Origin: Cloeon dipterum
Lineage: Eukaryota; Arthropoda; Insecta; Ephemeroptera; Baetidae
Assembly: GCF_949628265.1 (NCBI RefSeq)
Contig: NC_088789.1
Span: 1,178,001 to 1,242,000 of the forward strand
Direction of reading: 5' to 3'
Length of the DNA stretch: 64,000 bases
A model generated the notes under the pieces. It saw only the letters and a list, made by a program, of their open reading frames with translations. It was not told the origin of the DNA and ran no database searches. The translations under genes were made by a program, and so were the position numbers. This document shows positions 4,694 to 45,533 of the stretch, one piece after another. The first letter of the stretch is position 1. Each line of letters opens with the position of its first letter.

Positions 4694-7600
4694 ATGCCGA
4701 ACAATATTACGAGTATCTTTGATCTGCTCGATAAACGGAACAAAAATGGCAGCCTTCCTATGCTGCACAGAGTAGCAACGTGGGGAGCTATTCCAGATGT
4801 CCGCTCCCTCATCGGGAAAACACATGGCATCAATGCCAGAGGTGGCGTAGACAACGCAACTGCACTGCACCACGCCGCGAAGAACCGCAAGTGCGACAAG
4901 GAGATGATCGAACTGTTCCTCGCGCACGGAGCGACAGTCGAGGAGAAGGACTCGGAGGGCATGGAGCCGGTTGACTACGCCGTGCAGGGGAAAAACTTCG
5001 AGACGGCCGAGGAACTGCTCAAGCACCGAACCGACGGGTTCGATTGCAGCCTGCTCCACTACTACATCAAGAAGAACGACCTGGAGTCGGCCAGTGCGGT
5101 GTACGAAAATGACAAAACCTCGGCAAATGTTGTGGGAAAGTGTGGAAGGACGGCTCTGCAGGTCGCAGCCCAGTACGGAAGCCTGGAAATGTGCTTCTGG
5201 ATCCATAATTGCTCCGACGTGACGCAAAGCGCTTCCACAATCCTGCACTATGCTGTTCTCAACGAAATCAATCCGAGCAAAGTCGTCAAGTTTTTTTATT
5301 CACTCTACCCAGACATCGACGTGAGGAACCCCAGCAACGAGACTCCGCTTCATAGCGCGCTGAGGGCGGAAAACCTGGTGGCGGTGGAGGAGCTTCTTAA
5401 GCGCGGTGCGAGTCTCAAAGACGGTTGGAACGCTTTCCTCTTCTGCGTTAAGGAGAATAAATTAAAGAGCGCCAAGTTTGTGCACGAAAAAGACCCAAGT
5501 TTGATCAATCAACCCGATTATGACGGGAAGAAAGCGCTTCAACTCGCAGCCCTGCACGCTGATCTGGAAATGTGCAGGTGGCTGGTCAGCCTGAAGGTTG
5601 TCGTCGACGCTACGGACGGCGACGAACGCACCGTCCTGCACCTCGTCGCGCTGAGGAAGTCTCCGGACGTGGAGTTGGTTCGTTATTTCGCACCTCTCGT
5701 CGCGAACATCGACCAAGCAGACGCTTCCGATTTTAGTCCTCTGCACTGCGCCATCCAGAATGGAAGCTACGCCACCGCCAAGGAGCTGATCGACCAAGGC
5801 GCTAACCTGCGGGCGAAACTCTTACTCCGTATTCCTCTGCACTACTTTATTTCCCAAAAGATGCACGACGCTGCCAAGTTCGTGTACGAGAATGATCACC
5901 AGCAACTCGACATGACTGATGGGCCGATTAGCATGACTTCCTTGCACTACGCGGCCAAGATGGCTGACGTGAGGATGTGCAAGTGGTTAGTTGAATTGGG
6001 CTGCGACGTGGATTTCCGGACGCCAAACAAAGTTACAGTCCTGCACTGCGCCACGTTCAACAAGAATCATGGCAAGGAGATCATCGAGTACTTCCTGCAG
6101 TCCTCCGACCTCAACGTGGACGTTCCTGCCCACAACAACCAGACCCCTCTGCACTTCGCTCTCAGGAATGAACACTTGGAGGTCGCGGAGTTGCTGCTGA
6201 GTCACGGGGCGAACATCAAGGTGACAATAGGAAAGCAGAATCTGCTGCACTACTGCGTCATGCACGACAAGCTGAATAGCGCAAAGTTCGTGCACAAAAA
6301 GGACAGAGAGCTGATCAGAGCGCTGGAATCCGACGATAAGACCGCGCTGCACTTGGCAGCCCAATACGCTGGAGTCGACGTGTGTAAGTGGCTGGTGGAC
6401 GAAGGTGTCAAGGTCAGCGAGGTCGACGCGCATTACAACCGCACTGCACTGCACTTTGTTTCTCAGAGAGAGAAGGAATGCAAGGACATCATCAAGTTTT
6501 TCGGCACGACTGGAATGGACTTTGCAGCCAAGGACACGCGTGGCTATAGCGCGTTAGCTCTCGCCCTGTCCTCCGGGAAATTCGACATGGTCGAGGAGCT
6601 GTTGTCGTTGGACGTAAATCTGCGTTCCAAGGTCGATGAATACGACAACGTGCTACAGTTCTGCGTGGCGATAAAAAATATGGCGGCTGTCAAGTTGCTG
6701 TACAACAAGGACGAGAAGCTGATCAATGAAAGCGGTGCCAACAGGAGGACACCGCTGCACATTGCCGCTTGGAATGCTGATGTCTCTATGTGCAGGTGGC
6801 TGGTCAACCACGGCGCCGACGTGCACGCCTTGGACCGAATGCACAACAACGTTTTTCACTACTTCGCTCAAGACCAAGAAAATTCTATCGCTGACCATCA
6901 AAGGCGCGACCTCGTCACTTTCTTCAAATCAAAACATGTGAACGTGGACCAATTCAATCACGAAGGAAATACCCCACTCCACGTCGCCCTGCAGCTGAAA
7001 AACACTTCTGTCGCCAAATATCTGATCGAAAGCGGTGCCAGCCTGCTCCTTAAGCGTGAAGGGAAAAATTACCTCCTCTACTGCGTCCAAATGGAGTACC
7101 TAGAGAGCAGCAAACTGTTGCATCAAATGGCCCCTGACCTGATCAAAGGCTGCAACGAAAAAGGCCAAAATGCACTCCACATTGCTGCCCAAGGGGGAAG
7201 CCTGGAGATGGTCACGTGGCTCGTCGGGGAGGGAATGAAGGTTGACCAAGTGAACGAGGTTGACCACTACAACGTGCTGCACTACGCCACCCTGAACAAG
7301 AAGGAAGCAGAGCGTCTCGTGCGCTACTTCGTCGCTCAAAGAGGTCCGCTGAACGGAAAAACCAACCTCGAAGAGACTCCCCTGCACCTGGCCCTGCGAA
7401 GTAAAAACTACGCCATTGCCCAGATGATGGTGGACCTTGGCGCCGACGTCGACGCCATAATCGGAACTGAGCAGACTAACATGATCCACATTTGCGTGAT
7501 GGAAAACGATCTGGAAGGCGCCAAGATCGTGCACAGGGCCAATCCGCAGCTCATCAACCAATTAGCGACGGGAAAACGGAATGCACTTCACCTCGCGGCG

Positions 7601-7804
7601 TTCTACGGCAGCTTGGAAATGTGCCACTGGCTGTACGAAATGGGGGTCGACCCTCACGCCAAGGCTAGCGAAAACAGGTCGATTTTTTACTTTTGCGGCG
7701 ACCAAATTGAAAAGAAGAAATTTTTCTTGTCCGTGGGCTTGAAAAAAGAGAAAAGCTTGGCTAGTTTCTTGAGAAAAAGCTTCCGGATTAAAAAGAAAAA
7801 ATAA
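4694..7804 (+). CDS. Ankyrin-repeat protein, 1036 aa, single coding exon
   Basis: The protein is almost entirely ankyrin repeats, about 32, with cores such as TPLHFALRNEHLEVAELLL. They are ordered in a higher-order unit of about 130 residues made of four repeat types: an 'ALHxAAxxADxxMCxWLV' repeat, a 'TxLHxAxxxxxxGKEIIEYF' repeat, a 'TPLHxALRxxNLxVAEELL' repeat and an atypical 'NLLHYCVxxxxLxSAKFVHxKDxxLI' repeat. About eight units are present. The C-terminus is a basic, Lys-rich tail. There is no signal peptide or membrane segment, so the protein is probably cytosolic or nuclear and acts as a protein-binding scaffold; the partner is unknown. The start is the first ATG after a 51-base leader intron (GTAAG at 4626, acceptor AG at 4675-4676). 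First of three plus-strand subfamily A genes. The repeat class is certain; the function is not. Confidence 0.93.
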   Translation: MPNNITSIFDLLDKRNKNGSLPMLHRVATWGAIPDVRSLIGKTHGINARGGVDNATALHHAAKNRKCDKEMIELFLAHGATVEEKDSEGMEPVDYAVQGKNFETAEELLKHRTDGFDCSLLHYYIKKNDLESASAVYENDKTSANVVGKCGRTALQVAAQYGSLEMCFWIHNCSDVTQSASTILHYAVLNEINPSKVVKFFYSLYPDIDVRNPSNETPLHSALRAENLVAVEELLKRGASLKDGWNAFLFCVKENKLKSAKFVHEKDPSLINQPDYDGKKALQLAALHADLEMCRWLVSLKVVVDATDGDERTVLHLVALRKSPDVELVRYFAPLVANIDQADASDFSPLHCAIQNGSYATAKELIDQGANLRAKLLLRIPLHYFISQKMHDAAKFVYENDHQQLDMTDGPISMTSLHYAAKMADVRMCKWLVELGCDVDFRTPNKVTVLHCATFNKNHGKEIIEYFLQSSDLNVDVPAHNNQTPLHFALRNEHLEVAELLLSHGANIKVTIGKQNLLHYCVMHDKLNSAKFVHKKDRELIRALESDDKTALHLAAQYAGVDVCKWLVDEGVKVSEVDAHYNRTALHFVSQREKECKDIIKFFGTTGMDFAAKDTRGYSALALALSSGKFDMVEELLSLDVNLRSKVDEYDNVLQFCVAIKNMAAVKLLYNKDEKLINESGANRRTPLHIAAWNADVSMCRWLVNHGADVHALDRMHNNVFHYFAQDQENSIADHQRRDLVTFFKSKHVNVDQFNHEGNTPLHVALQLKNTSVAKYLIESGASLLLKREGKNYLLYCVQMEYLESSKLLHQMAPDLIKGCNEKGQNALHIAAQGGSLEMVTWLVGEGMKVDQVNEVDHYNVLHYATLNKKEAERLVRYFVAQRGPLNGKTNLEETPLHLALRSKNYAIAQMMVDLGADVDAIIGTEQTNMIHICVMENDLEGAKIVHRANPQLINQLATGKRNALHLAAFYGSLEMCHWLYEMGVDPHAKASENRSIFYFCGDQIEKKKFFLSVGLKKEKSLASFLRKSFRIKKKK

Positions 7805-9058: not shown

Positions 9059-12000
9059 ATGACTTTTACCAAGATTTCGCCTTGGACTAATTCTGGACTG
9101 GAGGCGAATTCCGAGTCTTTTCCGGCTTTCATCAAACTACAAAATCTGGGCCTACCCCTGATGTGCTCGGCTGCGAAAATTACCGACGCCGACGTGTGTC
9201 GTCGCCTGCTGGACGAGGGCGCCGACCTGGACGCCACCGACTCAGGGATCACGGCGCTGCACTACGCGGCAATGAATAAAAGGCACGGCGAGGCCCTGGT
9301 CGAGCTGTTCGTCTCCTGGGGCTTGAGAGTGAACCAAAAAGACGATCTCGACGAAGAACCCATTCATTTCGCTCTCAGGGCCAAGAATTTTCAGGTAGCA
9401 AAGCTGCTTCTTGAGTTGAAATACACTGCAAATGGCGAGCAGAAAAGGAATAACCTCCTGCACTTCTGCATCAAGGAACATAATCTCAGCGCTGCTAAAC
9501 ACGTCCTGGAGTTTGACAAGACGATGCTTCAGGAGAGAGGAGAACACGGCAAAACCGCCTTCCACCTCGCTGCAGAAGTAGGATTTTCATTTCAAAAATT
9601 GAATAATATGTTGTGTTAGCTAGATAGAGGACAACACAATGAAATACATGACATAAATCGTGTTTAACTGTTAGCCCTTTGAAAATATTTTTGAAGTCCA
9701 AGCAAACAATACATTCAAAGTTTTGGTTTTATTTTTTAAATATTCAATACAATTCATTTATTTGACTTTCAACATGGTAATACATTCAAGTGATAATTTT
9801 TTTCGTGTGTGTGAATTCACCTTTCTTAACCCTTATTATGGAATGACTTTTCACGCCAAACCTTACTTGCAGACTGCAGACATTTGCAGATTATCGTCCG
9901 TCTATCAATCAATATATATGGAGAAAATTTTGACCATTAAAAGTTCTTTACGATGTTTGAAATTATCGCTTTCCTCTCATTCATATTAAAACATTTAAAG
10001 TAAGTGGTAATTTGCTAAGAAATAATTTCAGAAAGTTGGAATGATAGTGGCTGTTAGATTATTATTGAATATTGAAAGCAATTCTCATTTACATAAATAC
10101 TTTCCAAAATCCCTCTCCCTCTTAATTTAAAGACTATCTTTGACGAAGCATCTGAGCACACGAATCAATTCTCGACAGGGGTCGAATTAGGTAATATGGA
10201 TATTTTTCCGAGTAAAAAGTGCAGCGTGACGTGCGAACTTTTTTCCCCGCCAAAACAATATGAAGCAAAGCTGGCTGGATCTGACAAAGAAATATTCGTA
10301 CAAGTGGTCTTCCTGCAAGTGCTCTAACCAGCTCTGACTCATGCGCACTTCTCGTATTCACATTGTTTTGGCAGGAAAAAAAGGTTCGCACGTCGCGCTG
10401 GACTTAATGGTAGGGAAAAAATATCCACTTTACCTAATTCGACCCTCAAGAATCGATTGGTGTGCTCCGAAACTTCGTCAAAGACGGTCTTCAATCAAAT
10501 CTTATAATTATAACTTCGTCGTAATTTACATTAAAACCACTCAGTTCTCGGACCTGCAAATGTGCAAGTGGCTGGTGGGCCAGGGCGCCAGCCCAAAGGA
10601 GCTTGACGCCAAAAACAAGGCTTCAGCAATGCACTTCGCGGCGTTCAACATGGCTCACGGCGCCGACCTGACGCTCTACCTGATCTCCTTCCGGCTGAAC
10701 GTGAACCAAAGGGACAGGTTCGACGAGACGCCGCTGCACTACGCGCTCAAAACGGGCAACCTGGCCGCCGCCGAGCAGCTGCTGATGTTCGGCGCCAGCC
10801 TCGACGTGCTCAGGTCCAACGAGAACCTGCTGCTCTACAGTGTCGTCGCCAACCGACTGCCCAGCGCCAGTTTCGTGTACCTAAAGAAGCCGCATCTGCT
10901 GCACGGCACGGACGACACGGCGAGGAATGCGCTCCATTTCGCGGCAGAGTTTTCAGACCTCGAGACCTGCCGCTGGCTGCTTGACCAGGGCGTTGACCTT
11001 CACGCCGTGGAAAATGTGAGATATCTTACTATGTGATTCAAAATAGTATTTAAAAAAATTAAATCTTAGCTGAATCGTGCTGGAAACAAAAACCAATCCA
11101 GCCATTCGTCATACAAACGTCGGAAAATATTTTTTGGAATTCAAACATGGTGGTTTTCACGATGATACGGCGATTGGCTTCACCGATTTTGGTTTTCAGC
11201 ATGTCAAAAGAAAAGATAATAAGTGGAGAATGCATAGTGGCAGAATTGAGTCTGAAATCGCAGCGGAAGTGCCTTAAAATCGAAAGTATACGGTGGCGCC
11301 ATCTATTGCCGGCTTCGAACACTAAGGGGTGAATTTTGTCTTGGCCACATCTCGAGTTCTAAAAGTCAGAATTGCAAAAACGGCACACCGTTCGACTTGT
11401 CTTGACCTCCCCTAATGATTCGCAGGGTTTTAGAGGTGCTCAACCCTCAACCCCCACCCCTGAAGGACCATATTTCAACTCTGATGATGAAAAAGTTTTA
11501 ATATTACATTTTTTCCTTCAAATATAAAACCTAAATATTTAAATTAAAAAAAAATAAAATTCTCTAAACATCCCTGCGAAAAATCTTCATTAGCCAATAA
11601 TACCAATGATAATTTAATCATAAGCATTATTGGAATAATGTTAATAAATGATGAATAAAAAATGATTGCAACACAATGTTGCGCTAATATTAAAAAAATA
11701 ATGAAAAACAAATGTAAATAAGTTATTATCTTAAGCTTGTTTTAATATTACACCAATGTTAATTCAATGATATCAGTGCGCATGCGTGAATGCGTGCGCA
11801 TCCATGAGTCGCACACTCTGCTACTCCGTCCGCCATCACCGCATCAAGAAACAAACACTGAACGGCTAACGGCTACGCTTCATGCAATTTTCGTTTTGTT
11901 CTTCGTTCTGCGAGTCGTTTGTCTGCTCTTAAGAGTTTAAAATACACCCATGTAAGGATCCTTGATGTTATCAACACACGCACCGTTCAGCAAATATTAC

Positions 12001-14553
12001 AGGTAATGAGAATTATTCGTTTTTTACTTTGTTTTCATTCCAATTCGCGGTTACAAATTTTTACTGCTGCACGCAGTGAGAAAACGAGCCGTAACTTTGA
12101 TACAACATCGAATTTTGATGCAATTTTTCGTTGACAGGCCGGGCGAGGATGGCTTCGACCCTGTGGAGCAGACGATGAACGAGCTGGAAGAGGGACAAGG
12201 ACAATGCGCGGCTGGACAAGAAGATGGCGAAGTTCGTCGGCTTTGAGCCGGGCCACTTTTCACGTCGCCACCTAGTGCCCAAGGACATCCACGACCCGCA
12301 CCCGTTTACCTTGTGGACTTTCTCCTCATGTTGCTGCCCTAATCGTCTTTTCTGATCGAGAACTACCCTAGCTCCATGAACATCCACCTTCCACGAAAGT
12401 GGCCCCACGTACCGCCACACCAAACTACTTTGGAACTCAAAATAATTAATTTTATGTCCTTGCGTCATGCGTTCGTGCAGAATTGCATTTGTATTCACCC
12501 GGTATTTTTCTCCACTGGTTTTTAATTGCTGTTTGAGCAACTCAATTTTTACCAATTTATTGCGCATTAAATTGACTTTTGTCATTTCCTCCTAGGTATT
12601 AATATTATATAAAATTAGAGGTCGGAGTGGTCAAAATTTACAAGTAGATATTTCCTTTTAAATTTTCATTTGCCTCAATTTCTCAATAAATTTATCTCAG
12701 ACAATTTTTCTAGTCGCATGAGCAATTTAGAAAAATATTGAAAACTTAAGTGAAAACATGGCCTGCAAGAAACTGGTGAAAATTGATAAAAAAAAAACCT
12801 TATTGCTACCACTTCACTGCATTTTTTTTTAATTTGGGCGTTTTGGAACCTTTGGTCCTTGACTTAAAAAATATTAATGACTTTTATGAGCACTGGCACC
12901 AAAAAGGGCGGTCAGAAATTGATGAGGTACTTGTCATGTGTGCTAATGGCCTGAACTTTATATTATACAGAGCCGCCATTATTGTTTCCCATTTTTGTCA
13001 CTGTCAATGCGGCCCGTCGGGCCGAACGATTTGAGAAAATCAAAAGTGGCACTCTAATTAAAATTAATTTTGCATTTAAATTTTTCAAAATTCGTTAATA
13101 ACAATGCTAGAACTGACAGTTATTATTAAATGCCAAATTAATTTTAATTAGTGTGTCACTTTTGATTTTGTCGAATCGTTCGGCCCGACGGGCCGCATTG
13201 ACAGTGACAAAAATGGGAAACAATAATAGCCGCTCTGTATAATATAAAGTTCAGGCCATCAGCACACATGACAAGTCCCTCATCAATTTCTGACCACCCC
13301 TTATTCATGCCAGTGTCGACGTCGCTCTGTGTCCCGACAGGACGACGATTTGACTAAGTGGCCAACATGTATTATGTAGTGCTGATTTTAAGTATTTCCC
13401 TCTTTAAACCCAACGACTTTGTCTCAATCCCTGCTGTGCACTTCAATGTACATTGTAAAACTAGAATGCTGTGACTAGAGAGAAACTGTTTTATGTGAAA
13501 TGACGTATAAATAATTTTTTATAAGTTATATAACTCTTGTGTGACTTACAAGTGTTACAATAATTTGTCTAGATATAATAAAAATATAAAATAATTAAAT
13601 AAAACTATGTATCTCATTCAGAAAACCCCTAATTACCAATATTCTACGGAAATTAGGACATCATTTAATTTCCATTTGAAATTAATAATAACGCAATGAT
13701 AGCGGCCAATATTGGTGCCAATATTAGAACAATATTGAAAAAAGTCACATTTTCACATTGATATAACATTAGACGCCAATATTAAAACAATAATGGTTAT
13801 TGGGAAATAATGTTACCCTAATATTAAAACAATGAAGATTTTTCGCAGGGATGGCCAATCAGACCTTCGACCTTAGCCAATGACCTTAATTTTGGTGCTC
13901 ATTTAACGAGATATGAATCTAATGCGCACTGTATCTTTTAAAATGGATCTCCAGGAGATATATGATATTTGATTTGTTTTGAAAATTTAAATTATTTTTT
14001 AACTGTAAAATGACAAAGGAAAAAAGAGGAAAAATAAATTAAAATTAAACTAAATCTTTTGTTCCAGAATGGTTTGTCAGTTCTGCACTTCACAGGCTAC
14101 AACTTTCCATTCGGCAGCGAACTGGTCGAGTTTTTGGTGTCCCGTGGGCTGGACGTGAACGGTCGAAAGTCGGAGGCGCACCGGACGCCTCTGCACTGCG
14201 CCCTCGAGTACGGCAACACGGGCGTCGCCGCCGAGCTGGTGCGTCTCGGCGCCAGGCTGGACGTGCGTTTCTCCGAGATGGACTTGCTGCACTTCTGCGT
14301 CGACAATGGTAACATGGCCGGCGCCAGGTTCGTGCACCAGCACTGCCCTGAGCTCGTCAGGGCCGGCAAGGACGCGTTGCACTGCGCGGCGCGGAAGGCA
14401 AACCTCGACATGTGTCGCTGGCTTATAGAAAGCGGCGCCGATCCGCACATTTTGGCTGACAACGGCGCCTCTCTTTTGGATTATTTCGACCCTGGCGTCC
14501 TGCAGAACGAATGCAAAAGCTACCTCAGCTCCTTGGGCGTTCGCAGAAGTTAA
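9059..14553 (+). CDS. Ankyrin-repeat protein, three coding exons, 491 aa
   Basis: Read as exons 9059-9577, 10545-11015 and 14068-14553. All joins are phase 0: donor GTAGG at 9578 to acceptor at 10543-10544, and donor GTGAG at 11016 to acceptor at 14066-14067. Joined, the ankyrin register continues exactly (LAAE|FSDLQMCKWL and AVEN|NGLSVLHF), which supports the model. The protein carries about three of the four-repeat units seen in the 4694 gene and ends 'SSLGVRRS'. No signal peptide or membrane segment. Introns fall at ankyrin boundaries, unlike the uninterrupted neighbour. Intron 1 carries a TTAA-type MITE; the 3-kb intron 2 carries two further foldback elements and a coding-like GC-rich patch. 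Likely an intracellular binding scaffold; partner unknown. Confidence 0.85.
10129..10491. mobile_element. TTAA-type palindromic MITE, copy 1
   Basis: The ends read AAGACTATCTTTGACGAAG and CTTCGTCAAAGACGGTCTT, and the arms are complementary almost to the centre, giving a foldback of about 360 bases. It lies in intron 1 of the ankyrin gene at 9059. Same family as the elements at 18211, 45657, 58313, 61398 and 62064. It has no coding capacity, so it must have been moved by a transposase encoded elsewhere. Confidence 0.85.
11078..11331. repeat. Second foldback family (GGTGGCGCCATCT), partial copy
   Basis: Shares the block from 'GAATGCAYAGTGGC' through 'CGCAGCGGAAGTGCCTTAAAA' to GGTGGCGCCATCT and TTCGAACACT with 16530-16875 and 21949-22316. 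The left arm present in the 21949 copy is missing or unrecognisable here. It lies in intron 2 of the ankyrin gene. Confidence 0.75.
12137..12330 (+). other. GC-rich coding-like patch in intron 2
   Basis: A GC-rich island in AT-rich intron sequence, directly preceded by a splice-acceptor-like TTGACAG. One frame reads 'LDKKMAKFVGFEPGHFSRR', but it is not open back to a plausible start. A donor-like ACAG|GTAATG also lies near 12000. This may be the remnant of a duplicated host gene or of a processed copy. I do not recognise the protein. Confidence 0.3.
12888..13320. repeat. Foldback MITE-like element, about 430 bases
   Basis: The left arm (about 12888-13060) and right arm (about 13130-13320) are near-perfect reverse complements. 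Matching landmarks are GGTCAGAAATTGATGAGG against CCTCATCAATTTCTGACC and CGGCCCGTCGGGCCGAACG against CGTTCGGCCCGACGGGCCG. Such close arm identity suggests a fairly recent insertion. It lies in intron 2 of the ankyrin gene at 9059 and has no coding capacity. Confidence 0.8.
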
Positions 14554-15095: not shown

Positions 15096-15868
15096 GAGTG
15101 GATTTTATACTATGATCTCAAAAATTTTTAATAAAAACATATTTTTTGATATGCTTGATCTCTAAATGCACTTAAAACACGTCGTTTCATTTATTTTCCA
15201 GTAATTTCCCTTGTCGACTTTTAAAAATTTAATCTACAATATGATCTATTCTATTTATTCTTATTTAAATCATCATTTGAATTATTTAATGAATTTTAAT
15301 AATTTTATGGATACATTTTATCAATTTAAAAAACGATATAAAATTAGAGAAAATATAATTTCTAATAATGTTGAAAGAACATGCAGCAAAGAGAAAATTT
15401 TAATGATTATATTGTTTTTCAAAGCGATAATGATTAGAAGCTTAAAATTTCGTTATAATTTCATTGAAACAAATTATTTCCTCTTCCGTTGAGTAAGTGC
15501 GTTGTTCTTTCTTTCGATGACCTTTATGCAACTCGCTCGACTCTCTTGCACCACCGGTTGCGTAATTTGGTAACTATTATACTTATTTCAATATGTTATC
15601 GCATTAATTTCACGTTAATTTCTTGATCAACTGATTTTATTGTGAAAATTTTAGCTTTCGAAAATTAAGAAACCATTTTGTTGCGTAGCTGCGAGATTCG
15701 AGCAAGAAAAACACGTCAGTACATATCCGATATTCGTCCTATTCATGTTAGTGTCGTTCCAGTCTGCTCAACTTTTTTAAAAAATGTGAGTTTTGTCACG
15801 GTTTATTATAGAGAAGAAAACCTTTTCATAAATTATTTATATTATAGATTCAGGTTATCTAAAAAAAT

Positions 15869-18596: not shown

Positions 18597-18600
18597 TTAA

Positions 18601-27480: not shown

Positions 27481-29363
27481 AAATATAGTTAAATCTAAAA
27501 TCTATATCCATATATTTGAACCAAACTCCTGAAACCGGTTAAATTGCTTCGAAATTGGAATTTTAATTATGAATGCTATTTTATTTTTCTACGTATATTA
27601 ATAATATGTGTTCAATCGACTAAATTTTTAAATACGCGTGGATAGAACTTCGAGACACCTCAATTTCTGTACTACTGCTCTGTAATGCAAGAGAATACAA
27701 CAAAAGAAGTTGTTTGTTTTATGGGGGTCTAAATGAGAGTATGACCTTCCATATAAAAAGGGAGTTTATTGGCGGAGTAGGATGGCTGCGTGTCGCTGAC
27801 TCGGCCCTGGCTCGTCTTCTTCAGATCTTGTCAGCCTCTGGTTGGTGAATGATTGTCGCCGAATCTTCTCTCGCCTTTTATTTTGGGTCGCGTCGGTTTA
27901 TATATGCTCGTCAAACAATGTGATTTGTCTGTTGTGTGAATTTGTGTGTTGCAGATTGGTCATTGTTTGACGGAATGTAGGTACCCTACAGTTTTATAAA
28001 AATTGGTTTTTAAACTCTTTGCTTCGTCGTGTGCAATTAAACATACACTCAGAATTTTGAAATTCAAGACTGAGCTTTAACTTTCCGTGCTCAATAAAAA
28101 ACTCCATTTTTAAGTATCAAAATTAAAATAGAAGTAATCTCGTGCATGAATTTCTTAATATTGTTAAAAAATTGAACATCGCTTGTTGAAGCATTATATA
28201 TAATCTAATTTTAGGAATCAGCTGACTTTGATGGTAACCATTCGCGCCATCTGATCAGGTGGTACCCCTATACACTCCTTTCGCGCTGCCTGAGCCCTGA
28301 GCAGCTGATCGCGTCAATACATACCCGCCACTCTGCAGCGCCTCTCTTGAAGTAAAACACTCTCAGCCGGTCTTCCTCAATTTGGAGCCGCGTGGTAAGA
28401 TATAAAACAATTCACAGTTACCAGAGGTTTTCGTTAAGTTTTAAGCACGAGACCTCTGTGTTCCACTGATTTAAGCCGCATTATTGTTTTTACTTATCTC
28501 CATAATCTATTTCGGTCCACCCCATGCTCAATCTGTAAGACAATAAATGCTATACCAATTTTTTTAGGGAAAATTATGAACTTTGAAATTACTTCAAAAC
28601 ACGGACTAAACACTAGAGTTTTCAGCCAGCAACTCAATGCCGAACCAGCCGGCAAAATTAAGGTCACGTAGGCAGCCGCTAAGCTGCCTATGAAAAATAT
28701 GTTTAAAAATTTAAGTGAAGGAGAAAATGTCCTCGAGTCCATCAGGCCGTTAAGCACTATCAAACTTCACGTTAAAAATATTGTCAGCGGCGCCAGCAGC
28801 CCGGAAAATGGCCAGCCGATGACGTCGGGCTAATAATTCGGCTTATCCGGTACCACTAGCCACCTCCTCAAATCTCGGCTGCAAGATCTCTAAAATCAAA
28901 TTATTTTTCAAGGCTACTTTAAATTTTTGGCTATGGAAAAATTGAATTTGACCATGTATGGCAGAATTTAAAATGATAGATTGAAATTCGATAAATTTCG
29001 GATTACTTTGGGAGAAATTCGACAAATACAGATAAAAATATTATTTTTTAACTCCCTAGCCTTCAAGTTAAATTTACGGAATTTGTATTCTTCGTGTACC
29101 CAGCAACATTGTTAAGATTTTTCAGCACTTACTACTATTTCAATATATATATATTAAGTTCATTAATGTAAAAGGAAAAAAGAAGTACGAACCTATAATC
29201 AGATTTTATTTTAGTTTTCAGGTCAGTTCCAAGAAATTGCAGTTTCTCCCTTTATACTTAAAGGAAGAACTCGTGTGAACAGCTTTACTAAACACACAAA
29301 ATCGTACGTTTTCAAGGACCAGACAATGTATTAAATATTAAACAAATTAATCCTTTCTTGCAG
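27480..29363. other. Spacer and leader of the next ankyrin gene
   Basis: No coding gene recognised. A GC-richer patch at about 28250-28393 ends in a good donor (CGTG|GTAAGA at 28394) and probably is the promoter and non-coding first exon of the gene at 29367. The leader intron would run to the acceptor TTTCTTGCAG ending at 29363. A 12-base inverted repeat CGTCAAACAATG/CATTGTTTGACG lies at about 27908 and 27960. Confidence 0.45.
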
Positions 29364-29366
29364 AAA

Positions 29367-33147: not shown

Positions 33148-35352
33148 ATGTGCAGTCCTCTAAAGAAGCTGCGGCTGTTTAAGACTCACAAGCTACTGAC
33201 CGGAGACGCGTCTGCGTTGATGGAAGCGGCTTTGTTCGGTGACGTGGAGGCGTGCAAAAAGCTATTAAAAGAGAGTGCTGACTTAAACGAAAAGACCAAA
33301 TCGTACCGTTGCTCCGTGATGCACTTTGCAGCCGTCAACCGAAAGTACGGGAAAGAAGTCGTCAAATATTTCGCTTCCCGCGGGCTCAACATGGAAGAAT
33401 TGGACTTGGAAAGGGAGTCACCAATCGACTACGCCCTCAGGGAAGAGTTGTTCGAGGTTGCCAAGGAGTTAATCAAACTGCAATTCTCCCGCAACAATCT
33501 GCTGCATTACTGCGTCTACAAAAACAAATTGGTCTCGGCCAAAGAGGTGCACGAACACGACAGAGAATTGATCAAAGAACCCGGCCCCGACGGAACGAAC
33601 GTCCTCCACGTGGCAGCGTCGTACGCGGACCAGTCCTTGTGCGAGTGGCTGATCGACGAAGCGGGCGTTGACGTCTATTCCCTGAGCGAAACGGCGAAAA
33701 GCACAGCATTGCACTACGTTTGCTTCAACCACGCGTACGCCGAGGACCTCGTCCCTTTTTTCATATACAAGGGATTGCACGTCAACTATGCGAACGACGA
33801 TGGTTTAACACCGATTCAATGCGCCCTCGTGACCCAAAATCTCGAGGCTGTCGAGTCGCTGGTCGACTTCAATGCAAATCTAAGAGTCGAGTATATGGGC
33901 CAAAATCTGATGCACTTTTGCATAGCCAACAATTGTCTGTTGAGCGCCAAGTTGCTGCACAAAATTGATCCAGAGCTGTTTAACGAGGATGACGCCATCG
34001 GACGCAACGTCTTCCACAAAGCGGTGATGACTGCGGACGAGCGGATGTGCGTGTGGCTCCACGAGGAGCGCGTCTGCACCACGAGACCGTGGCGAGGCTA
34101 CAATTCCCTTGCTCTCGCGACATTCAACGAGAAGCATGGCGGGAGAGTCGTCCAGTTTTGCATCAGTAACATCAACTCTGACCTCAACCAGTTCGGAAAT
34201 GTTCCCATTTTTTCTGCTTTGGCAACCGGAAACATCGACGCTGCTGACGAATTGTGCAAATACGGAGCGGACCTGCGTGGAACCCTGAACGGTGACAGCC
34301 TCCTGGTTTCTTGCTTGAAGGCGAACAAATTGAAGAGCGTGCAATTTTTGCACAAAATGGATAAATCTCTTTTCAAGGAGCCTTCTGCTGCTCTCGTAGC
34401 AGCCATGAATGGAGATTTAACAACTTTTAAATGGCTCGTTGAGCAGGCAAACGTGAATCCACGTGTTTTGTGTAAAACGGCTGGTGGTTCTGTATTGCAC
34501 TTCGCAGCAATGAACGAGGCACACGGTAAATTTATCGCCGAATATGTCATTTCTAATTTTAAACTAGACGTGAATAAAAAATGCAAAAACGGCTTCACTC
34601 CTCTGGTCGCTGCTCTTCAAAATAACAACTTTGAAACCGCCGAAGAACTCTGCAAATACGAATCAGCTTTGAAAGTGAAAGTTGGCAATGAAAATATTTT
34701 GGTAATATGCGTAAGATCCAATTTGTTAAAAGCCGCTCAGTTCGTGCTCAGAAAAGACAAAAATTTAATTGAAGTAGAACTCGACGACGGAAAAACCATC
34801 CTCCAGTACGCAGCTTACTTTACAGACCTGGACTTTTGCAGATGGCTCATCGAAGAAAATGTTGACCCCATGGAGTTGAGCAAAATCGACAAATCGAGTG
34901 CTCTTCATTTAGCAACCTTGAATTTAAACCATGGAACAGAAATCATCAACTTCTTTGTTTCTACCTTAAATATGGACAAGAATCTAAAGTCACTTCTTGG
35001 AACAACGCCAATTATATTGGCCGTTCAAGCTCGAAACATCGGCGCTGTAAAGAAATTATGCGAACTCGGTGCCAACCTGACTGTGCACTATAATGGAGAA
35101 AATCTAGTGCACAGGTGCGTTATTCTCGACGATCTGGACGTTGCCAAGTTGTTGCACAGATTCAATCCACGTCTGATCCACAAGAGAGGATTCCTTAAAA
35201 AAAATTCACTTCACATCGCAGCAGAGCTTGGAAATTTTCGATTTTATAATTGGTTTCATCAAAATGGTGTTGATCAGCATGCAGTGACAATAAATGGTGA
35301 AAAAGTTAGCGATCTCGTTCCTTGGTTCTCTCAGGATTTTCAGAAATTATAG
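33148..35352 (+). CDS. Ankyrin-repeat protein, subfamily B, 734 aa
   Basis: A single coding exon. The ATG follows a 67-base leader intron (33072-33138). The N-terminus MCSPLKKLRLFKTHKLLTGD followed by 'ASALMEAALFGDVEACKKLL' matches the 39725 gene closely. Ankyrin repeats then follow in four-repeat units to near the end, closing with the 'VTINGEKVSDLVPWFSQDF' segment that recurs almost unchanged in the 42003 exon. The gene is longer than the 29367 paralogue by about one unit, which suggests gain or loss of whole units. No signal peptide or membrane segment. An AATAAA lies at 35597-35602. Intracellular scaffold by inference; partner unknown. Confidence 0.93.
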   Translation: MCSPLKKLRLFKTHKLLTGDASALMEAALFGDVEACKKLLKESADLNEKTKSYRCSVMHFAAVNRKYGKEVVKYFASRGLNMEELDLERESPIDYALREELFEVAKELIKLQFSRNNLLHYCVYKNKLVSAKEVHEHDRELIKEPGPDGTNVLHVAASYADQSLCEWLIDEAGVDVYSLSETAKSTALHYVCFNHAYAEDLVPFFIYKGLHVNYANDDGLTPIQCALVTQNLEAVESLVDFNANLRVEYMGQNLMHFCIANNCLLSAKLLHKIDPELFNEDDAIGRNVFHKAVMTADERMCVWLHEERVCTTRPWRGYNSLALATFNEKHGGRVVQFCISNINSDLNQFGNVPIFSALATGNIDAADELCKYGADLRGTLNGDSLLVSCLKANKLKSVQFLHKMDKSLFKEPSAALVAAMNGDLTTFKWLVEQANVNPRVLCKTAGGSVLHFAAMNEAHGKFIAEYVISNFKLDVNKKCKNGFTPLVAALQNNNFETAEELCKYESALKVKVGNENILVICVRSNLLKAAQFVLRKDKNLIEVELDDGKTILQYAAYFTDLDFCRWLIEENVDPMELSKIDKSSALHLATLNLNHGTEIINFFVSTLNMDKNLKSLLGTTPIILAVQARNIGAVKKLCELGANLTVHYNGENLVHRCVILDDLDVAKLLHRFNPRLIHKRGFLKKNSLHIAAELGNFRFYNWFHQNGVDQHAVTINGEKVSDLVPWFSQDFQKL

Positions 35353-38719: not shown

Positions 38720-38741
38720 AAAGCTTCAATATATCGCTCTG

Positions 38742-39724: not shown

Positions 39725-40437
39725 ATGGAGGGAAGACCCAAAAAACGGTTAATGTTGTTCAAAACGCACAAGCTGGTGACAGGCGCGACTAAACTAATGG
39801 AAGCGGCCTTGAATTATGACCTGAAAGTGTGCAAAAAATTAATGGAAGACGGTGCTGATTTGAAAGAAAAAACCAAAGAATACGGCGTCTCAGTGATGCA
39901 CTTCGCAGCCGTGAATAAGAATCACGGAATTGAGCTGGTCAAATATTTCGCGTCTCTTGGCTGTGGCAAGATTCAATTCGACTCAGAAGGAGAGCAGCCC
40001 CTGGACTACGCCATCAGAGAAGAAGCTTTCGCGGTTGCCAAGGAGCTCTGCAGGCTGATCGATCCTAACTTCAATCTGTTGCACTACTGTGTAGCGCAGA
40101 GCAACTTGGAAGCCGCCAAAAGGGTTCACGATTTATACCCACAACTTGTCGTCGTGCCCAACTTAGAGGGGAAAAACAGTCTCCACGTAGCAGCGATGAT
40201 GGCTGATCAGCAGATGTGCGAGTGGCTGATTGATGAAGTGGGCATCAACGTTCACTGCGTGAGTGCTGGGACGAATAGAACAGCCTTACACTTCGTTGGC
40301 TACAATGATGCTTACGGAGAGGTTCTGGTTGAATTTTTTATCAGCAGAGGACTGCACGTGGACCAAAGTGATGCTCCTGGCCCTCATGCCGATCGCGCCG
40401 CTCGCTGGAAAAACGGACGCGGAGGGAGGCAACTCTG
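39725..40437 (+). pseudogene. Subfamily B ankyrin gene, 5' part, broken near 40390
   Basis: The ATG follows a 52-base leader intron (39670-39721). The protein (MEGRPKKRLMLFKTHKLVTG) follows the 33148 and 29367 paralogues closely to about residue 217 ('SRGLHVDQSDA'). It then leaves the family frame: one frame over, 'LMPIAPLAGK' continues the ankyrin core for about ten residues before homology ends at about 40425. The family sequence resumes at 42003 after a GC-rich block. No good donor is visible near the break. This may be a disrupted gene, an assembly error, or a gene with an unusual join. The missing piece overlaps the start of the 42003 exon, so a simple intron does not explain it. Confidence 0.65.
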
Positions 40438-41500
40438 AAGAATCCTATACTCTATGTAGGAAAAACTACTCTGGCAGTGGTGGTCATCAATTCGTTGGCC
40501 TCAAATGGGCAAACTCGTCGGTTTGGAGAGATAGGGAATCGGCCAAAGAGCCGTACTAAAAAGCCAAAAATCCGCTATGAGCCGTCTGGCACCTTTATTT
40601 ATTCAGACAAGGATAGTGAGTTGCGTCGGAGTTTGGGTTCACGCGTCAGCAACGATGTTCTCTGCTCCTGTCGTGGTCCTCAGGTGGGAAAGGCGGTGTC
40701 CTGCTGCATGGCCGCGTGCGTGCTTCTGCAACAGTAAATTAACGGAGGTGAGCGGAGTTAAGACTTCTTCAGGTCGAGCGTCTATTTAAGACCAGCCGGG
40801 TACCGGGCTGGTCCTGAATAAAGATTCCTACCTGAGAGTAGTGCTCAGGTTTTTTCTCTCTGCTTTCCAGGTCGTAGGCTACGTCAAGGGTCGGTCCTCG
40901 AGCACTCCTGCGAACAAATAGACGCGGGTGATCAGGCCGTTCTAAATTGCCGGGGAGGTTAACACTCACAGGTAAGGACTGACGTAGGTGTGTTCCCTCC
41001 TCACTCGAAGCTAGTTTCTTCCTAGGGCTGCCTGCCACAGTCGATCGCCTTACAGGTCACTCCGGCTGCAGGGGGCTACACCGAAGGAAGTCTGTTCTCC
41101 GAGATCTCCTGTGTGGAAGAGCAGAAGGTTGAATACGAGTGAGCTCGACTCCTTTCGCCAGCCGTACCTAGGCGTAGATGAGATCGTTGCTCGGTCGGGC
41201 TCTCAGAGAAGAAGCGTCCTGGGCCAAGTCGAAAGCACAGCAATCGAGCGGTCTGGTAGTCTCTCCTCTCAAGGCAGAGTCAACAGTCGGGCAGTCTCTC
41301 CTCTCTAAGGAGAGTCTCCTCCCTAGGTAGGCGGCGAGCTCTTCTCCAGGGAAGTGGCAGCTCGCATCTGCCCGGAGTAGTAGCTTGCAGGCTCTTTTAT
41401 ACCCTCGCTGGCCTCCACCCCTCGTGCATCGTGCGGTCGCCTGGCAGGGAGGAAGTGGAGGGTGGATCCTGCCTCAGGCGTGACCTTCCCCTAACATGTG
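40425..41500. other. GC-rich block inserted in a subfamily B ankyrin gene
   Basis: About 1 kb of clearly GC-richer sequence than both flanks. It begins exactly where ankyrin homology stops. It contains an open stretch ('VVVINSLASNGQTRRFGEIG', about 40477-40737), a hairpin GACCAGCCGGGTACCGGGCTGGTC split by its central GTAC, an AATAAAG and CTCTCC-rich repeats. It may be the end of a retroelement or a captured host fragment. I recognise no diagnostic domain. Confidence 0.4.
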
Positions 41501-42002
41501 GTTAGCGTAAGAACTAAGGGGGGTTGCCTCCTCTTTCACTTCGGGCGGCAACACTTAAATGTTTTACTTGTGTCAGACGTCAAAATAATAACTACTTTAT
41601 TATTCAAGCGGAAATCTACTATTCATTCTCTTTTCTTTAGTGCCAGACTACGTGAAAACTGCTTCTGGATGGGCTGGGACATATCAATTAATATTCTAAA
41701 ATATTATAACATGTAAACTATTAATGTAAATGACTAGGGGGATCAATGATTAAAATTCTAAAAGGCACGGATTTGATTCTACACTTTAATATTAATATCC
41801 ATCCAGATCAATAAAATTCAAAAGTGGTTGTTCTTCTAATTGCCGAATCTAGACGTTCTGGAAGACGAAATAAATGCGGGAGGATGCCATGTTTCGTGGA
41901 ACTTTTTTTTTTTTTTATTGGGAGAAATCGTAATTAGTATACTCGACCCGGACCAGTGACGTAAATAATCTCACTCCAATTCACGTGGCGTTGTCCTTTC
42001 AG

Positions 42003-43127
42003 AATTTATTGGTTGCAGATGCGTTGATCGACAACAACGCAAATTTAAAAGTCAATTATTGCGATGCAAATTTAGCCTTTTTCTGCGTAACTAAGAACAA
42101 TTTATTGAGCGTCAAGTTATTGTACAAAAAAGACGAAAGACTTTTTCACGAGTTGCTTTTGGGGAACACCATAGCTCATTGGGCAGCACTGAACGCGGAT
42201 CTGGATGTTTTTAAATGGCTAATCGAAGTGGCGAAAGTCAACACTGATGCTGATGAGAAAGGAAGAACTTTGCTGCACTACGTCTCCCAAAATGAAAACT
42301 ACGGAGATAACCTGGTCGAATATATCGTTTCAACCATTAAAATCGACGTGAACGAAAAATGCAGACTAGGTTGGACGCCGCTGATGGCTGCCCTGAGTTG
42401 CACAAACCTTGTTGTGTGCGCGAAGCTGTTCAAACTTGGAGCTGACTCAAAAGTTAAATTTGGCGAACAAAATCTTTTAATCTTCTGCGTATCTAATAAT
42501 TTGTTGGAGAGTGCTAGGTTTTTGCATGAAATGGATGACAGTTTAACTGACCAAGAATTACAGGACGGAAATACCATCTTCCATATCGCGGCTGCTTTTG
42601 CAGACGTGGACATGTGCGATTGGCTAATCGAGGAAGGAGTCGACAGTTTCGCATTAAACTCGATCAACTATTCAAGTGCACTCCACGCAGCTTCCTTGAA
42701 TGTAGTACACGGCGCTGAAGTTGTCGAATATTTGGTATTGAACAAGCAATTAGATACGGATTATAAAAATAGGCTGGGTGTTACGCCTTTTATTGAGGCC
42801 GTTCACTCTAGAAACATCGGCGCTGTCGAGAAATTGTGCGAACTCGGTGCCAACCCGACTGTATACTATAATGGAGTTAATCTAGTGCACAAGTGCATTA
42901 TTCTCGACGCTCTGGACGTCGCCAAAGTGTTGCACAGACACTTTGGATATCTGATCCACATGAGAGGTATCCGCAATGAAAATTCGCTTCATATCGCAGC
43001 AGAGCTTGGAAATTCTCGATTTTACAATTGGTTTCTTAAAAACGGTGTTGATCAGCATGCAGTGACAATAAATGGCGAAAAAGTCAGCGATCTCATTCCT
43101 TGGTTCTACCGGGACTTTTATAATTAA
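42003..43127 (+). CDS. Subfamily B ankyrin gene, 3' exon, 374 aa
   Basis: Opens after a good acceptor (GTTGTCCTTTCAG, ending 42002) with 'NLLVADALIDNNANLKVNY', the third repeat type of the family unit, and runs to 'VSDLIPWFYRDFYN'. It is very close to the C-terminal half of the 33148 protein. It is probably the second half of the gene beginning at 39725. An AATAAA lies at 43389-43394. The exon itself is open and well conserved; whether it is still joined to a working 5' part is unclear. Confidence 0.75.
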   Translation, partial: NLLVADALIDNNANLKVNYCDANLAFFCVTKNNLLSVKLLYKKDERLFHELLLGNTIAHWAALNADLDVFKWLIEVAKVNTDADEKGRTLLHYVSQNENYGDNLVEYIVSTIKIDVNEKCRLGWTPLMAALSCTNLVVCAKLFKLGADSKVKFGEQNLLIFCVSNNLLESARFLHEMDDSLTDQELQDGNTIFHIAAAFADVDMCDWLIEEGVDSFALNSINYSSALHAASLNVVHGAEVVEYLVLNKQLDTDYKNRLGVTPFIEAVHSRNIGAVEKLCELGANPTVYYNGVNLVHKCIILDALDVAKVLHRHFGYLIHMRGIRNENSLHIAAELGNSRFYNWFLKNGVDQHAVTINGEKVSDLIPWFYRDFYN

Positions 43128-43661: not shown

Positions 43662-45533
43662 TCAAAGGCTGTAATGACGTTCATTCTTGGAAATCAACCG
43701 GGTGAGAATTCCTCGTTTCTTCAAACCCAACGATTCGAGGTAGTGCCTGACGTCCTTGTCGCGCCTCTTTGTAGCCAGATCAAGCGCTGTTTCTCCCTTG
43801 CCGGTTCGCTCCTGAGGGTTGACGCCCTGGCTGACGAGCCACTCGCACAGTTTTGCGTTAGCGAATTCCGCTGCGATGTGAAGGGCGTTTTTACCACCTA
43901 CCCCTCGTTCTTTAATCAGCGCTGGGTTGTTCGAGTGGACGAATTTCGCACCTTCCAGACTGTTTTTCCACGCGCAGAAGTGAAGCAGGTTTCCGACCTT
44001 GGTGGTTAGGTCAGCGCCGAGGGAGACCAACTCGTGGGCAGCGTCCGTGTTTCCGTGCTGCAGGGCGAAGTGCAGCGGCACCAGTTGGAATTTGTTTCTT
44101 CCATTCACCGGGACGTGCAAGGAAATCAGGAAGCGGACGATCTCCCCTCCGTGTTTCCTGTTTTTGGCCGCCAGGTGCAGAGCGTTGCTGCCCTTGTTCG
44201 TCAGGGCGTTGACGAGGTCCGCGTCCTCCGCCACGAGCCACTTGCAAAATTCCAGATCGGAAAATTCGGCCGCGATGTGGAGGGCGGTCCTGCCCGTGGG
44301 GTCACTGCCGGTGATCAGCCGGGGGTTGTTCTTGTGCACGAGTTTGGCGCCAAAGAGGAAGTCCTGCTGAGCGCAGTAGTGGAGGAAATTCAGGTCTTTC
44401 AGCTCCAGTTCCAAATCGGCACCGTGCTTGACCAGCTCCTCGGCGACCACCGGGTTTTTCTCTTTGATCGCAAAGTGGAGGGGCGTGCATCCGTTACCGG
44501 TGAGGCCGTTCACGTCCACTCCACCTTGTACGAAGTACTTGACGATCTGTTCCAACTCTGGTCTGCTCTGCCTGTTGAAGGCCACAAAGTGCAGCACGCT
44601 GGCCCTGTACGAGAATACGTCCCTGTCGGTGAGACTGATGTCATTTTTGTCCAGCCACTGGATCATCTGGAGGTCGGCGTGCATAGCCGCGTGGTGCATC
44701 ACGGTCCTGCCTCGCTTTCCTTTCTCGAAGATGAGGAACTCGTCCTTGGCGTGCAGCATCTTCACGGCGTCCAGGTCGTTGATTTTGACGCAGAAGTGCA
44801 TCACGTTGGTCAGGTCGATGATCATCGCCCGCAGGTCGGCGCCTCGCTCGATCAGCTCCTCGGCCATGTCCCGTCTGCCGTGCTGGAAGGCGTAGTGAAG
44901 CGGACTCATCTTCCCCTTGGACAGCGTGTACATGAGCGCGCCCGTTCCAGGGCCCGTGAAGCATCGCACGAATTCCCTGTGGTCCGACTCTCTGAGGGCT
45001 GCGTAGTGCATTGCGGTGCACTTCTCGTCATCCCTGACGTTGATGTTGACACCGTTCCCTGCGAGCCACCTGCACACCTCCAGGTCTGCGTGCTGGGCCG
45101 CCAGGTGGAAGGCCGTTTTTCCACACTCCCCTTTCTCCTTGATTAATTTCCTTTCGCTCTCGTGGACGATTTTGACGAATTCAAAGTTGTTCTCTTTCAC
45201 GAAATAGTGCAAGAGGTTGTTCTTCCCCTCCTCCGTGCCTTCTCCGCTTTTGATTTCGAGCAGTTTCTTGGCCACCTCGAAATTCCTTGCCCTGACTGCG
45301 TAGTGAATTGCTTCCTGGCCCTCTGAGTCTTTCAGGTCCGCTTTAAGTCCGAGCGAAGTGAGGTATTCGACGACTTGCTTGCCATTCAGCGTGTTCAACG
45401 CCGCGCAATGCATCGCCGTCGCATCCAAATTGCCACTCACGGCGCCGGCGTCGGCGCCCTCGTCCTCAACGAGCCGGCGGCAGTGCTCCACATCGGAGGT
45501 CTTGGCGGCCACGTGCAGCGGATTCAGTTCCAT
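43662..45533 (-). CDS. Ankyrin-repeat protein, 623 aa
   Basis: A single coding exon on the minus strand. The ATG (MELNPLHVAAKTSDVEHCRR) follows a 46-base leader intron (45555-45600). The protein is ankyrin repeats from the first residue, in the four-repeat unit of subfamily A (TALHIAAEFSDLEFCKWLV, ALHLAAKNRKHGGEIVRFL, PLHFALQHGNTDAAHELV, LLHFCAWKNSLEGAKFVH). It ends with a basic stretch after 'HYLESLGLKKRG', like the ends of the 4694 ('LSVGLKKEK') and 14553 ('LSSLGVRR') products. That end motif groups it with subfamily A although it lies next to subfamily B. The non-coding first exon is very short, and a TTAA-type MITE begins only about 55 bases upstream of its donor. Confidence 0.92.
   Translation of the reverse strand: MELNPLHVAAKTSDVEHCRRLVEDEGADAGAVSGNLDATAMHCAALNTLNGKQVVEYLTSLGLKADLKDSEGQEAIHYAVRARNFEVAKKLLEIKSGEGTEEGKNNLLHYFVKENNFEFVKIVHESERKLIKEKGECGKTAFHLAAQHADLEVCRWLAGNGVNINVRDDEKCTAMHYAALRESDHREFVRCFTGPGTGALMYTLSKGKMSPLHYAFQHGRRDMAEELIERGADLRAMIIDLTNVMHFCVKINDLDAVKMLHAKDEFLIFEKGKRGRTVMHHAAMHADLQMIQWLDKNDISLTDRDVFSYRASVLHFVAFNRQSRPELEQIVKYFVQGGVDVNGLTGNGCTPLHFAIKEKNPVVAEELVKHGADLELELKDLNFLHYCAQQDFLFGAKLVHKNNPRLITGSDPTGRTALHIAAEFSDLEFCKWLVAEDADLVNALTNKGSNALHLAAKNRKHGGEIVRFLISLHVPVNGRNKFQLVPLHFALQHGNTDAAHELVSLGADLTTKVGNLLHFCAWKNSLEGAKFVHSNNPALIKERGVGGKNALHIAAEFANAKLCEWLVSQGVNPQERTGKGETALDLATKRRDKDVRHYLESLGLKKRGILTRLISKNERHYSL

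What the first reader, a model, noticed from the sequence alone, without database searches (positions are those of the whole stretch)
4694..45533. Higher-order repeat: four different ankyrins form one unit of about 130 residues
In the subfamily A and B proteins the repeats do not vary at random. They cycle through four types: 'ALHxAA..MCxWL', 'HxAAxNxxHGxE', 'TPLHxALRxxNLxxAxEL' and 'NLLHxCVxxNxLxSAKxVHxxD'. The fourth type lacks the usual 'GAD' loop and has an invariant Val-His. Protein lengths differ by whole units. This implies the unit, not the single ankyrin, is what is duplicated, and perhaps what binds. I know of no description of this architecture.
Basis: partly seen in the sequence, partly recalled or inferred. 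Interest (0 to 1): 0.75.

Follow-up and report, generated by a model that had tools for sequence, protein, structure and literature searches.

The report
Ankyrin genes built in fours
A large family of animal genes, possibly from a wasp, makes long proteins whose building block is a fixed set of four different ankyrin repeats rather than one; the pattern is real and very regular, but block-wise duplication of ankyrin repeats was already known and what these proteins bind is unknown.

Summary
Without segmentation, the 1036-aa protein is most like itself at lag 136 (z 7.5; lag 34, z 4.1). Cut into repeats, similarity peaks at every fourth repeat (z 7.2) and neighbours are less alike than in shuffles. 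Among 51 ORFs picked by a one-unit query, 50 hold near-full units, 155 in all. AlphaFold models of two proteins put an extra short helix after repeat type 4 in every unit, 7 of 7 and 4 of 4. In a related gene elsewhere in the genome the unit is a DNA tandem: 432 nt, 3.7-3.9 copies, 87-88% matches, no indels.

Corrections: in the window the array is old. For 125 of 155 units the closest relative is at the same N-terminal position of another ORF, for one in the same ORF. Val-His is not invariant (13 of 35). The class is published: Bjorklund 2006 calls four the more dominant ankyrin duplication size; Galpern 2020 describes phase-keeping ankyrin super-repeats. I found no description of this family in one open-licence library. 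That the unit is a binding module is untested.

The parts
4694..7804 (+). P0001, 1036 aa, one open frame: 7 four-ankyrin units plus a two-repeat C-terminal cap (30 repeats)
   Evidence: AlphaFold mean pLDDT 83.1
4760..5149 (+). P0001 unit 1 (types 1-2-3-4)
5153..5530 (+). P0001 unit 2
5534..5932 (+). P0001 unit 3
5939..6340 (+). P0001 unit 4, used as genome query
6344..6748 (+). P0001 unit 5
6752..7168 (+). P0001 unit 6
7172..7579 (+). P0001 unit 7
7583..7720 (+). P0001 C-terminal cap (types 1-2)
9059..9619 (+). ORF with one unit, probably an exon of a spliced family gene
10341..11036 (+). ORF with one unit and the start of the next, probably an exon of a spliced family gene
14059..14553 (+). 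ORF with types 2-3-4 and the start of a next unit, probably an exon of a spliced family gene
15863..16297 (+). Stop-to-stop frame with types 1-3, probably an exon of a family gene
17512..18195 (+). ORF with one unit and the start of the next (the open frame, from 17443, begins in a type 4), probably an exon of a family gene
29358..31238 (+). P0002, 626 aa: 4 units plus cap
33148..35352 (+). P0003, 734 aa: 5 units; the cap match is weak (E 0.18)
   Evidence: unsupervised clusters recover all four types
39725..40438 (+). One unit and half of the next, probably the first part of a spliced gene
41985..43127 (+). P0006: half a unit, 2 units, weak cap (E 0.051); probably the second part of the same gene
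43662..45533 (-). P0004, 623 aa: 4 units plus two-repeat cap (18 repeats)
   Evidence: AlphaFold mean pLDDT 86.2, third helix at residues 128-132, 265-269, 404-408, 537-541
47907..49463 (-). Third subfamily (P0005 and its upstream frame), 3 units
50745..51964 (+). Broken copy of the third subfamily, pieces in several frames; described only
53247..54761 (-). Third subfamily, 3 units
55630..57144 (+). Third subfamily, 3 units, inverted partner of 53247-54761

Best explanation
These are members of a large birth-and-death family of ankyrin-only, probably intracellular, scaffold proteins. Shown: their ankyrin solenoid is built from a module of four unlike ankyrins, types 1-2-3-4, often closed by a one- or two-repeat cap. 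Shown in a relative, inferred here: the array first grew by tandem duplication of the whole four-repeat DNA segment. Shown for the ORFs compared: since then whole genes have mostly been copied, units keep place-specific sequence, and close copies are under purifying selection. Predicted by models: type 4 replaces the usual finger after its second helix with a short third helix, so the solenoid carries one fingerless junction every four repeats. Inferred: finger tips and inner helix ends bind protein or peptide partners, and the type 4 junction marks off the modules structurally (a spacer, a hinge or a self-contact), which is why the phase is kept although units of one ORF are only about 25-38% identical on average. 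Family growth then supplies scaffolds with different binding surfaces, in the manner of other lineage-specific wasp ankyrin families.
For: Period four without and with segmentation. Units from two seeds in different phase. Genome-wide: by my count of the lists, 149 of 150 scored matches of one P0001 unit (the query itself among them) and 140 of 150 of a P0003 unit start at query residue 7 or before and end at 121 or after. Of 658 adjacent typed pairs in 51 ORFs, 14 break the cycle, while six ORFs of another ankyrin class of the same genome, put through the same profile, come out disordered. 432-nt DNA tandem of the unit. Nearest units at the same position in other genes; 120 of 136 pairs of four-unit ORFs more alike position by position. 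dN/dS 0.37 over 37 unit pairs. Finger tips change fastest, pN 0.135 against 0.083. A helix of four or more residues after the second helix in 7 of 7 and 4 of 4 type 4 repeats and after no other repeat in those two models. Pfam finds only ankyrin-type families in six window proteins at E 0.001.
Against: No expression, localisation or binding data. Types 1-3 are only weakly distinct in P0001, P0002 and P0004. The type labels come from a profile that holds the order. Column groups were chosen after searches had been seen, so its shuffles are descriptive. The two models share alignment rows, so they are not independent; P0002 and P0003 were not modelled alone. P0001 units match units at mixed positions of other ORFs at only 38-46%. 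All 16 pairs without position signal are among the 78 deepest. 'Intracellular' rests on the absence of other Pfam domains; no signal-peptide predictor was run.
Confidence: 0.72

Rival explanations
1. History only. A four-repeat segment was duplicated long ago by unequal crossing-over and the period is a fossil of that; four has no structural or binding meaning.
For: Bjorklund 2006 and Galpern 2020 find such super-repeats of many sizes in ankyrins, and Galpern names no characteristic size; another class in this genome has period two; units are duplicated as DNA in a relative.
Against: The phase and type marks survive at low unit identity, the third helix is predicted in 11 of 11 units of two proteins, and type-signature columns change more slowly than average, pN 0.051 against 0.083 (columns picked post hoc).
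Confidence: 0.3
2. The four-ankyrin unit is itself a separate peptide-binding module, as an ankyrin repeat cluster is in tankyrase, so each protein offers several sites.
For: Precedent: tankyrase has five ankyrin repeat clusters, four of which bind a short peptide motif. Tankyrase 5jhq is among the Foldseek hits, rank 18-20. Fast-changing columns lie at finger tips and inner helix ends.
Against: No shared ligand pocket was identified; the two models show repeats following each other without long unstructured linkers between units; Foldseek's best hits are continuous ankyrin-B and ankyrin-1 arrays.
Confidence: 0.25
3. The genes came from a symbiont or virus, like the PRANC-type wasp ankyrins, and brought the unit with them.
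For: Nasonia ankyrin genes are proposed to have come by horizontal transfer; the only phage records matching P0004 are Wolbachia phage WO ankyrins (6 records, best places 24-34% identity).
Against: Three WO ankyrin ORFs, from 2 of those 6 records, show no period of four; no bacterial or viral contig relative was found, with exact patterns from one protein only; no PRANC in six proteins and four C-terminal stretches.
Confidence: 0.07

Closest known systems
Ankyrin super-repeats (Bjorklund et al. 2006, PMC1553488; Galpern et al. 2020, PMC7314423)
   Same: Ankyrin arrays whose similarity peaks at several repeats and keeps phase; four is called more dominant for ankyrins in 2006, and the mean autocorrelation of long arrays peaks at 2 and 4 in 2020 (passages).
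   Different: Those are surveys across many proteins. Here one four-type unit recurs in 50 ORFs of one genome, with a predicted third helix in type 4.
Tankyrase ankyrin repeat clusters
   Same: A module of several ankyrins repeated along one protein (passages of PMC6911004 and PMC9688111).
   Different: Single-cluster constructs are 159-162 residues with a known peptide ligand, and the protein has SAM and PARP domains; here units are spaced 127-139 residues in P0001, with no other Pfam domain and no known ligand.
Chalcid lineage-specific ankyrins, CLANKs (PMC6161386)
   Same: Fast-growing, lineage-specific ankyrin family in a wasp group, with variable repeat number (abstract and one section).
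   Different: CLANKs were tied together by a C-terminal, PRANC-like region of about 100-200 residues (two Nasonia members lack it); here the whole stretch from the start of the last detected repeat to the ORF end has median 40 and maximum 89 residues in 51 ORFs, and no PRANC was found.
24-repeat ankyrin membrane-binding domain (AnkB, AnkR)
   Same: Long continuous ankyrin solenoid; best Foldseek and PDB sequence hits; several binding sites along an inner groove (passages of PMC4358367).
   Different: No four-repeat unit is mentioned in the passages I saw; none of the other domains of ankyrin proteins was found here.

Membership tests
Ankyrin repeat proteins (Pfam Ank clan) | Tandem ankyrin repeats above curated cut-off | tested here: met
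   Six of six proteins, Ank_2 E 3e-21 to 2.4e-111; models are helix-turn-helix solenoids
Ankyrin super-repeats | Autocorrelation maximum at more than one repeat, phase kept | tested here: met
   Distance 4, 8 and 12 peaks in P0001, 8 window ORFs and 43 other ORFs
Ankyrin super-repeats | Unit duplicated as a block of DNA | tested here: met
   432-nt tandem in L019 and L062 (overlapping loci, one array) and in L029; not in the window
Tankyrase | SAM and PARP domains after the clusters | tested here: not met
   Only ankyrin-type families in six window proteins
Tankyrase | Cluster binds the tankyrase peptide motif | not testable with these tools
   No binding assay
CLANK | PRANC-like C-terminal region of 100-200 residues | tested here: not met
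   Six proteins and four C-terminal stretches without PRANC; at most 89 residues from the start of the last detected repeat. The paper says that two Nasonia CLANKs lack the region too, and no iterative search was run
CLANK | Chalcid wasp | tested here: inconclusive
   190 Mb, four contigs of 36-43 Mb and one of at least 29 Mb, no exact TTAGG array; species not named
Ankyrin-1/2/3 | Spectrin-binding and death domains after the repeats (recalled) | tested here: not met
   No such family in six proteins

The most novel reading that the evidence does not exclude
The four-ankyrin block is a separately evolved recognition module, tankyrase-like in logic but unrelated in origin: three fingers and one fingerless, three-helix junction form one site, genes gain or lose whole sites, and this genome has multiplied the gene into a set of many scaffolds with several sites each.
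Probability: 0.22. Interest if true: 0.62.

Novelty: new variant of a known kind. Interest (0 to 1): 0.42.

Why it matters
It gives an unusually clean natural case in which the unit of evolution of an ankyrin array is larger than the ankyrin, with both an old, diverged state and a fresh DNA-level tandem in one genome. That lets one test whether super-repeats are only a fossil of duplication or a selected structural module. The predicted three-helix type 4 repeat is a concrete, checkable mark.

Tried and rejected
Exon shuffling as the origin of the unit: rejected as a simple account, because the largest ORFs hold 4 to 7 units in one open frame and, by eye, the split genes seem to break at different places of the unit (inside type 1, between types 2 and 3, between types 3 and 4). 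Splice sites were not tested.

Symbiont or viral origin: not supported. PRANC/CLANK membership: not met. Tankyrase membership: not met.

A generic single-ankyrin profile, meant to cut repeats without using the unit, shrank to 29 positions over three rounds and was dropped; repeats were cut with the unit profile instead, hence the controls. A first ORF extraction mishandled minus-strand loci and was replaced. A second structural library was unavailable. dN/dS above one was looked for only as a total and per type, and not seen.

Literature: ten searches, all that the session allowed, in a library of open-licence PMC papers (one search was on tankyrase only). I saw no description of this family in the listings or passages; subscription papers were not searched.
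Full report
What was claimed. Four kinds of ankyrin repeat follow one another in a fixed cycle, so the real unit is about 130 residues; lengths differ by whole units; the fourth kind lacks the GAD loop and has an invariant Val-His; no such architecture has been described.

Setting. The window is C4:1178001-1242000 of a 190-Mb genome in 10 contigs. C1-C4 measure 36-43 Mb each, and C5 reaches at least 29 Mb. No exact five-copy TTAGG repeat was found, though an assembly may lack its telomeres. Size and contig number remind me of Trichogramma, an egg-parasitoid wasp with five chromosomes; that is recall and inference, not a test. One Trichogramma assembly paper gives 215 Mb (passages of PMC9960361).

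The period. Autocorrelation of the raw P0001 sequence against 100 residue shuffles peaks at lag 136 (z 7.5), 276 (7.0) and 135 (6.5); lag 34 reaches 4.1. P0003 and P0006 peak at 136 (8.7, 7.2), P0005 at 135 (4.7). P0002 and P0004 peak at 275 and 276, two units, with 139 at 3.7. A window method that allows indels shows the same in each of P0001-P0004 and in the means of 8 window ORFs and 43 ORFs from elsewhere. By contrast six long ankyrin ORFs of another class in the same genome peak at 71 and 138, that is at two repeats and its multiples. The finding's own refutation test does not refute it.

The unit. A profile grown from a single P0001 unit finds 35 near-full units in the window, with 7, 4, 5 and 4 in P0001-P0004. 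Spacing in P0001 is 130, 127, 136, 134, 137, 139, 137. A seed shifted by two repeats gives the same period and 30 near-full hits. With boundaries taken from the profile, similarity of repeats at distance four is 38.3 against a shuffled mean of 16.4 in P0001 (z 7.2), 32.7 against 13.2 in 8 window ORFs (z 12.4), and 53.3 against 17.5 in 43 others (z 34.0); distance one is below the shuffles in all three. In 51 ORFs 644 of 658 adjacent pairs follow the cycle and 44 begin with type 1. The ORFs were picked by a one-unit query and the labelling is helped by the profile's own order, so the control matters: the six period-two ORFs, put through the same profile, come out in disorder. Unsupervised clustering recovers all four types only in P0003; in P0001, P0002 and P0004 type 4 falls together while types 1-3 are mixed (adjusted Rand 0.28, 0.35, 0.27; for P0002 and P0004 no better than the best of 5000 label shuffles). 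Same-type identity in the four main window proteins averages 30-36%, different-type 25-28%. As to whole-unit lengths: P0001, P0002 and P0004 have 30, 18 and 18 typed repeats and P0003 20, with a weak further cap; over the 51 ORFs 26 end in a detected cap, 23 at type 4 and 2 at type 3.

The four types, over 82 units kept at under 60% identity out of 155: type 1 has Cys14 (83%) and Trp16 (72%); type 2 Asn42 (93%), His45 (60%), Gly46 (80%); type 3 Pro70 (90%), Asn79 (77%), Ala83 (83%) and a Gly-Ala finger where it is present; type 4 Asn101 (83%), Cys106 (74%), Asn110 (69%), Lys116 (70%), Val118 (49%, Leu 35%), His119 (60%) and Asp or Asn at 122 (77%). So the Val-His mark is a tendency: 13 of 35 window units have Val-His and 25 of 35 have His there.

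Structure. AlphaFold2 on P0004, with nine other rows cut from five other window proteins, gave mean pLDDT 86.2, pTM 0.72. A five-residue helix follows the second helix of type 4 at 128-132, 265-269, 404-408 and 537-541, once per unit. P0001 (mean pLDDT 83.1, pTM 0.52) has it at 141-145, 268-272, 402-406, 538-542, 674-678, 814-818 and 951-955: seven of seven units. No other repeat in these two models is followed by a helix of four or more residues, apart from the C-terminal tails; three-residue turns occur elsewhere. The missing GAD loop is thus, in the models, a different local structure. The two models share alignment rows, and pTM 0.52 says that the overall curvature of P0001 is uncertain. 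Foldseek's best matches to the P0004 model are ankyrin-B and ankyrin-1 arrays.

How far it extends. One P0001 unit has 150 scored matches (of 1306 candidates, the query itself among them): by my count of the list 129 on C4, 12 on C2, 7 on C1, 2 on C3, and 149 of 150 run from query residue 7 or before to 121 or after. A P0003 unit has 150 of 822, of which by my count 140 do so. These are lower bounds for the family. From the 60 loci returned, 48 distinct ORFs were drawn (5 in the window), plus three more window ORFs, making 51.

What is duplicated. At C4:31278994-31281726 a 911-aa ORF holds a tandem of 432 nt, exactly 144 codons, seen in two overlapping loci as 3.7 and 3.9 copies with 88% and 87% matches and no indels; the neighbour L029 has 2.9 copies at 86%. 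Similarity at lag 432 rises and falls near the junction of types 3 and 4. This is the unit caught in duplication. In the window it is over: TRF sees no such array. Of 155 units, the nearest relative is at the same position in another ORF of the same unit number for 99, at the same N-terminal position otherwise for 26, at the same C-terminal position for 18, elsewhere in another ORF for 11 and in the same ORF for 1. P0001 is an outlier: its seven units find their nearest relatives at mixed positions, 38-46% identical. Among 17 four-unit ORFs, 120 of 136 pairs are more alike position by position than across positions; among the 78 deepest pairs it is 62, so all 16 failures lie there. So the array is older than most of the gene copies compared, and the family now grows mainly by whole genes.

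Selection. Over 37 same-position unit pairs (27 ORF pairs, 70-97% identical, each unit used once) dN/dS is 0.37: close copies are kept. Finger-tip columns have pN 0.135 and inner-helix-end columns 0.133, against 0.083 for random columns; type-signature columns 0.051, core 0.036. The groups were chosen after seeing conservation and rates, so this is descriptive. It is what a binding surface would look like.

Known or new. Bjorklund et al. [quoted passage not shown] Galpern et al. 2020 (abstract and passages of PMC7314423) find ankyrin super-repeats that keep phase, with mean peaks at neighbours 2 and 4, but no characteristic size. Tankyrase shows that clusters of ankyrins can be the binding module (passages). 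The class is known; the fixed four-type unit across 50 ORFs, the third helix, and old and new states in one genome I did not find in the library searched. A symbiont source is not supported: Wolbachia phage WO ankyrins match P0004 at 24-34% identity, but the three ORFs tested have no period of four.

Function. I commit to an intracellular ankyrin scaffold with partner-binding finger tips; that the four-repeat block is the binding module is a live but weaker reading (0.25). The shown steps are the period, the spread over four contigs, the DNA tandem, the age order and the purifying selection; the third helix is predicted; the binding and the location in the cell are inferred.

Noticed in passing
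L001-L008 (C1 and C4): Another ankyrin class of this genome has a two-repeat super-repeat (66-71 residues), and L001 carries a non-ankyrin N-terminal region that looks NACHT-like by eye.
   Followed up: partly
L004 (C1:42185626-42188913): A period-two ankyrin array whose self-similarity is strongest at about 198 residues, a six-repeat block.
   Followed up: no
window 53247-54761 (-) and 55630-57144 (+): Head-to-head inverted pair of third-subfamily genes; arms 53999-54802 and 55589-56392 are 89% complementary.
   Followed up: partly
window 49747-50005 and 55054-55312: Inverted copies 98% alike outside the ORFs, closer than the other inverted pairs of this stretch (80-91%), so perhaps a recent duplication or conversion.
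   Followed up: no
window 50745-51964: Broken copy of a third-subfamily gene in several frames.
   Followed up: partly
window 57651-63457: Exons that look like glycosyltransferase family 11 (fucosyltransferase-like): two of four stretches tested pass Pfam's cut-off for it; arms 57664-57954 and 63157-63447 are inverted copies, 93%.
   Followed up: partly
window 25179-25715: Reverse transcriptase of a retroelement (RVT_1 E 3.1e-24).
   Followed up: no
window 19417-19674 (-): Frame with a GDSGG stretch as in trypsin-like proteases, seen by eye; no Pfam match.
   Followed up: partly
window 36197-37009 (-): 270-residue acidic frame without a Pfam match.
   Followed up: no
window 12903-13302: 177-nt inverted repeat, 94% complementary, 46 nt apart.
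   Followed up: no
window 10097-10403, 45617-46113, 58320-58690, 61189-61718: A dispersed, probably non-gene repeat, seen by eye as recurring ORF fragments with 'EHTNRF'-like peptides.
   Followed up: no
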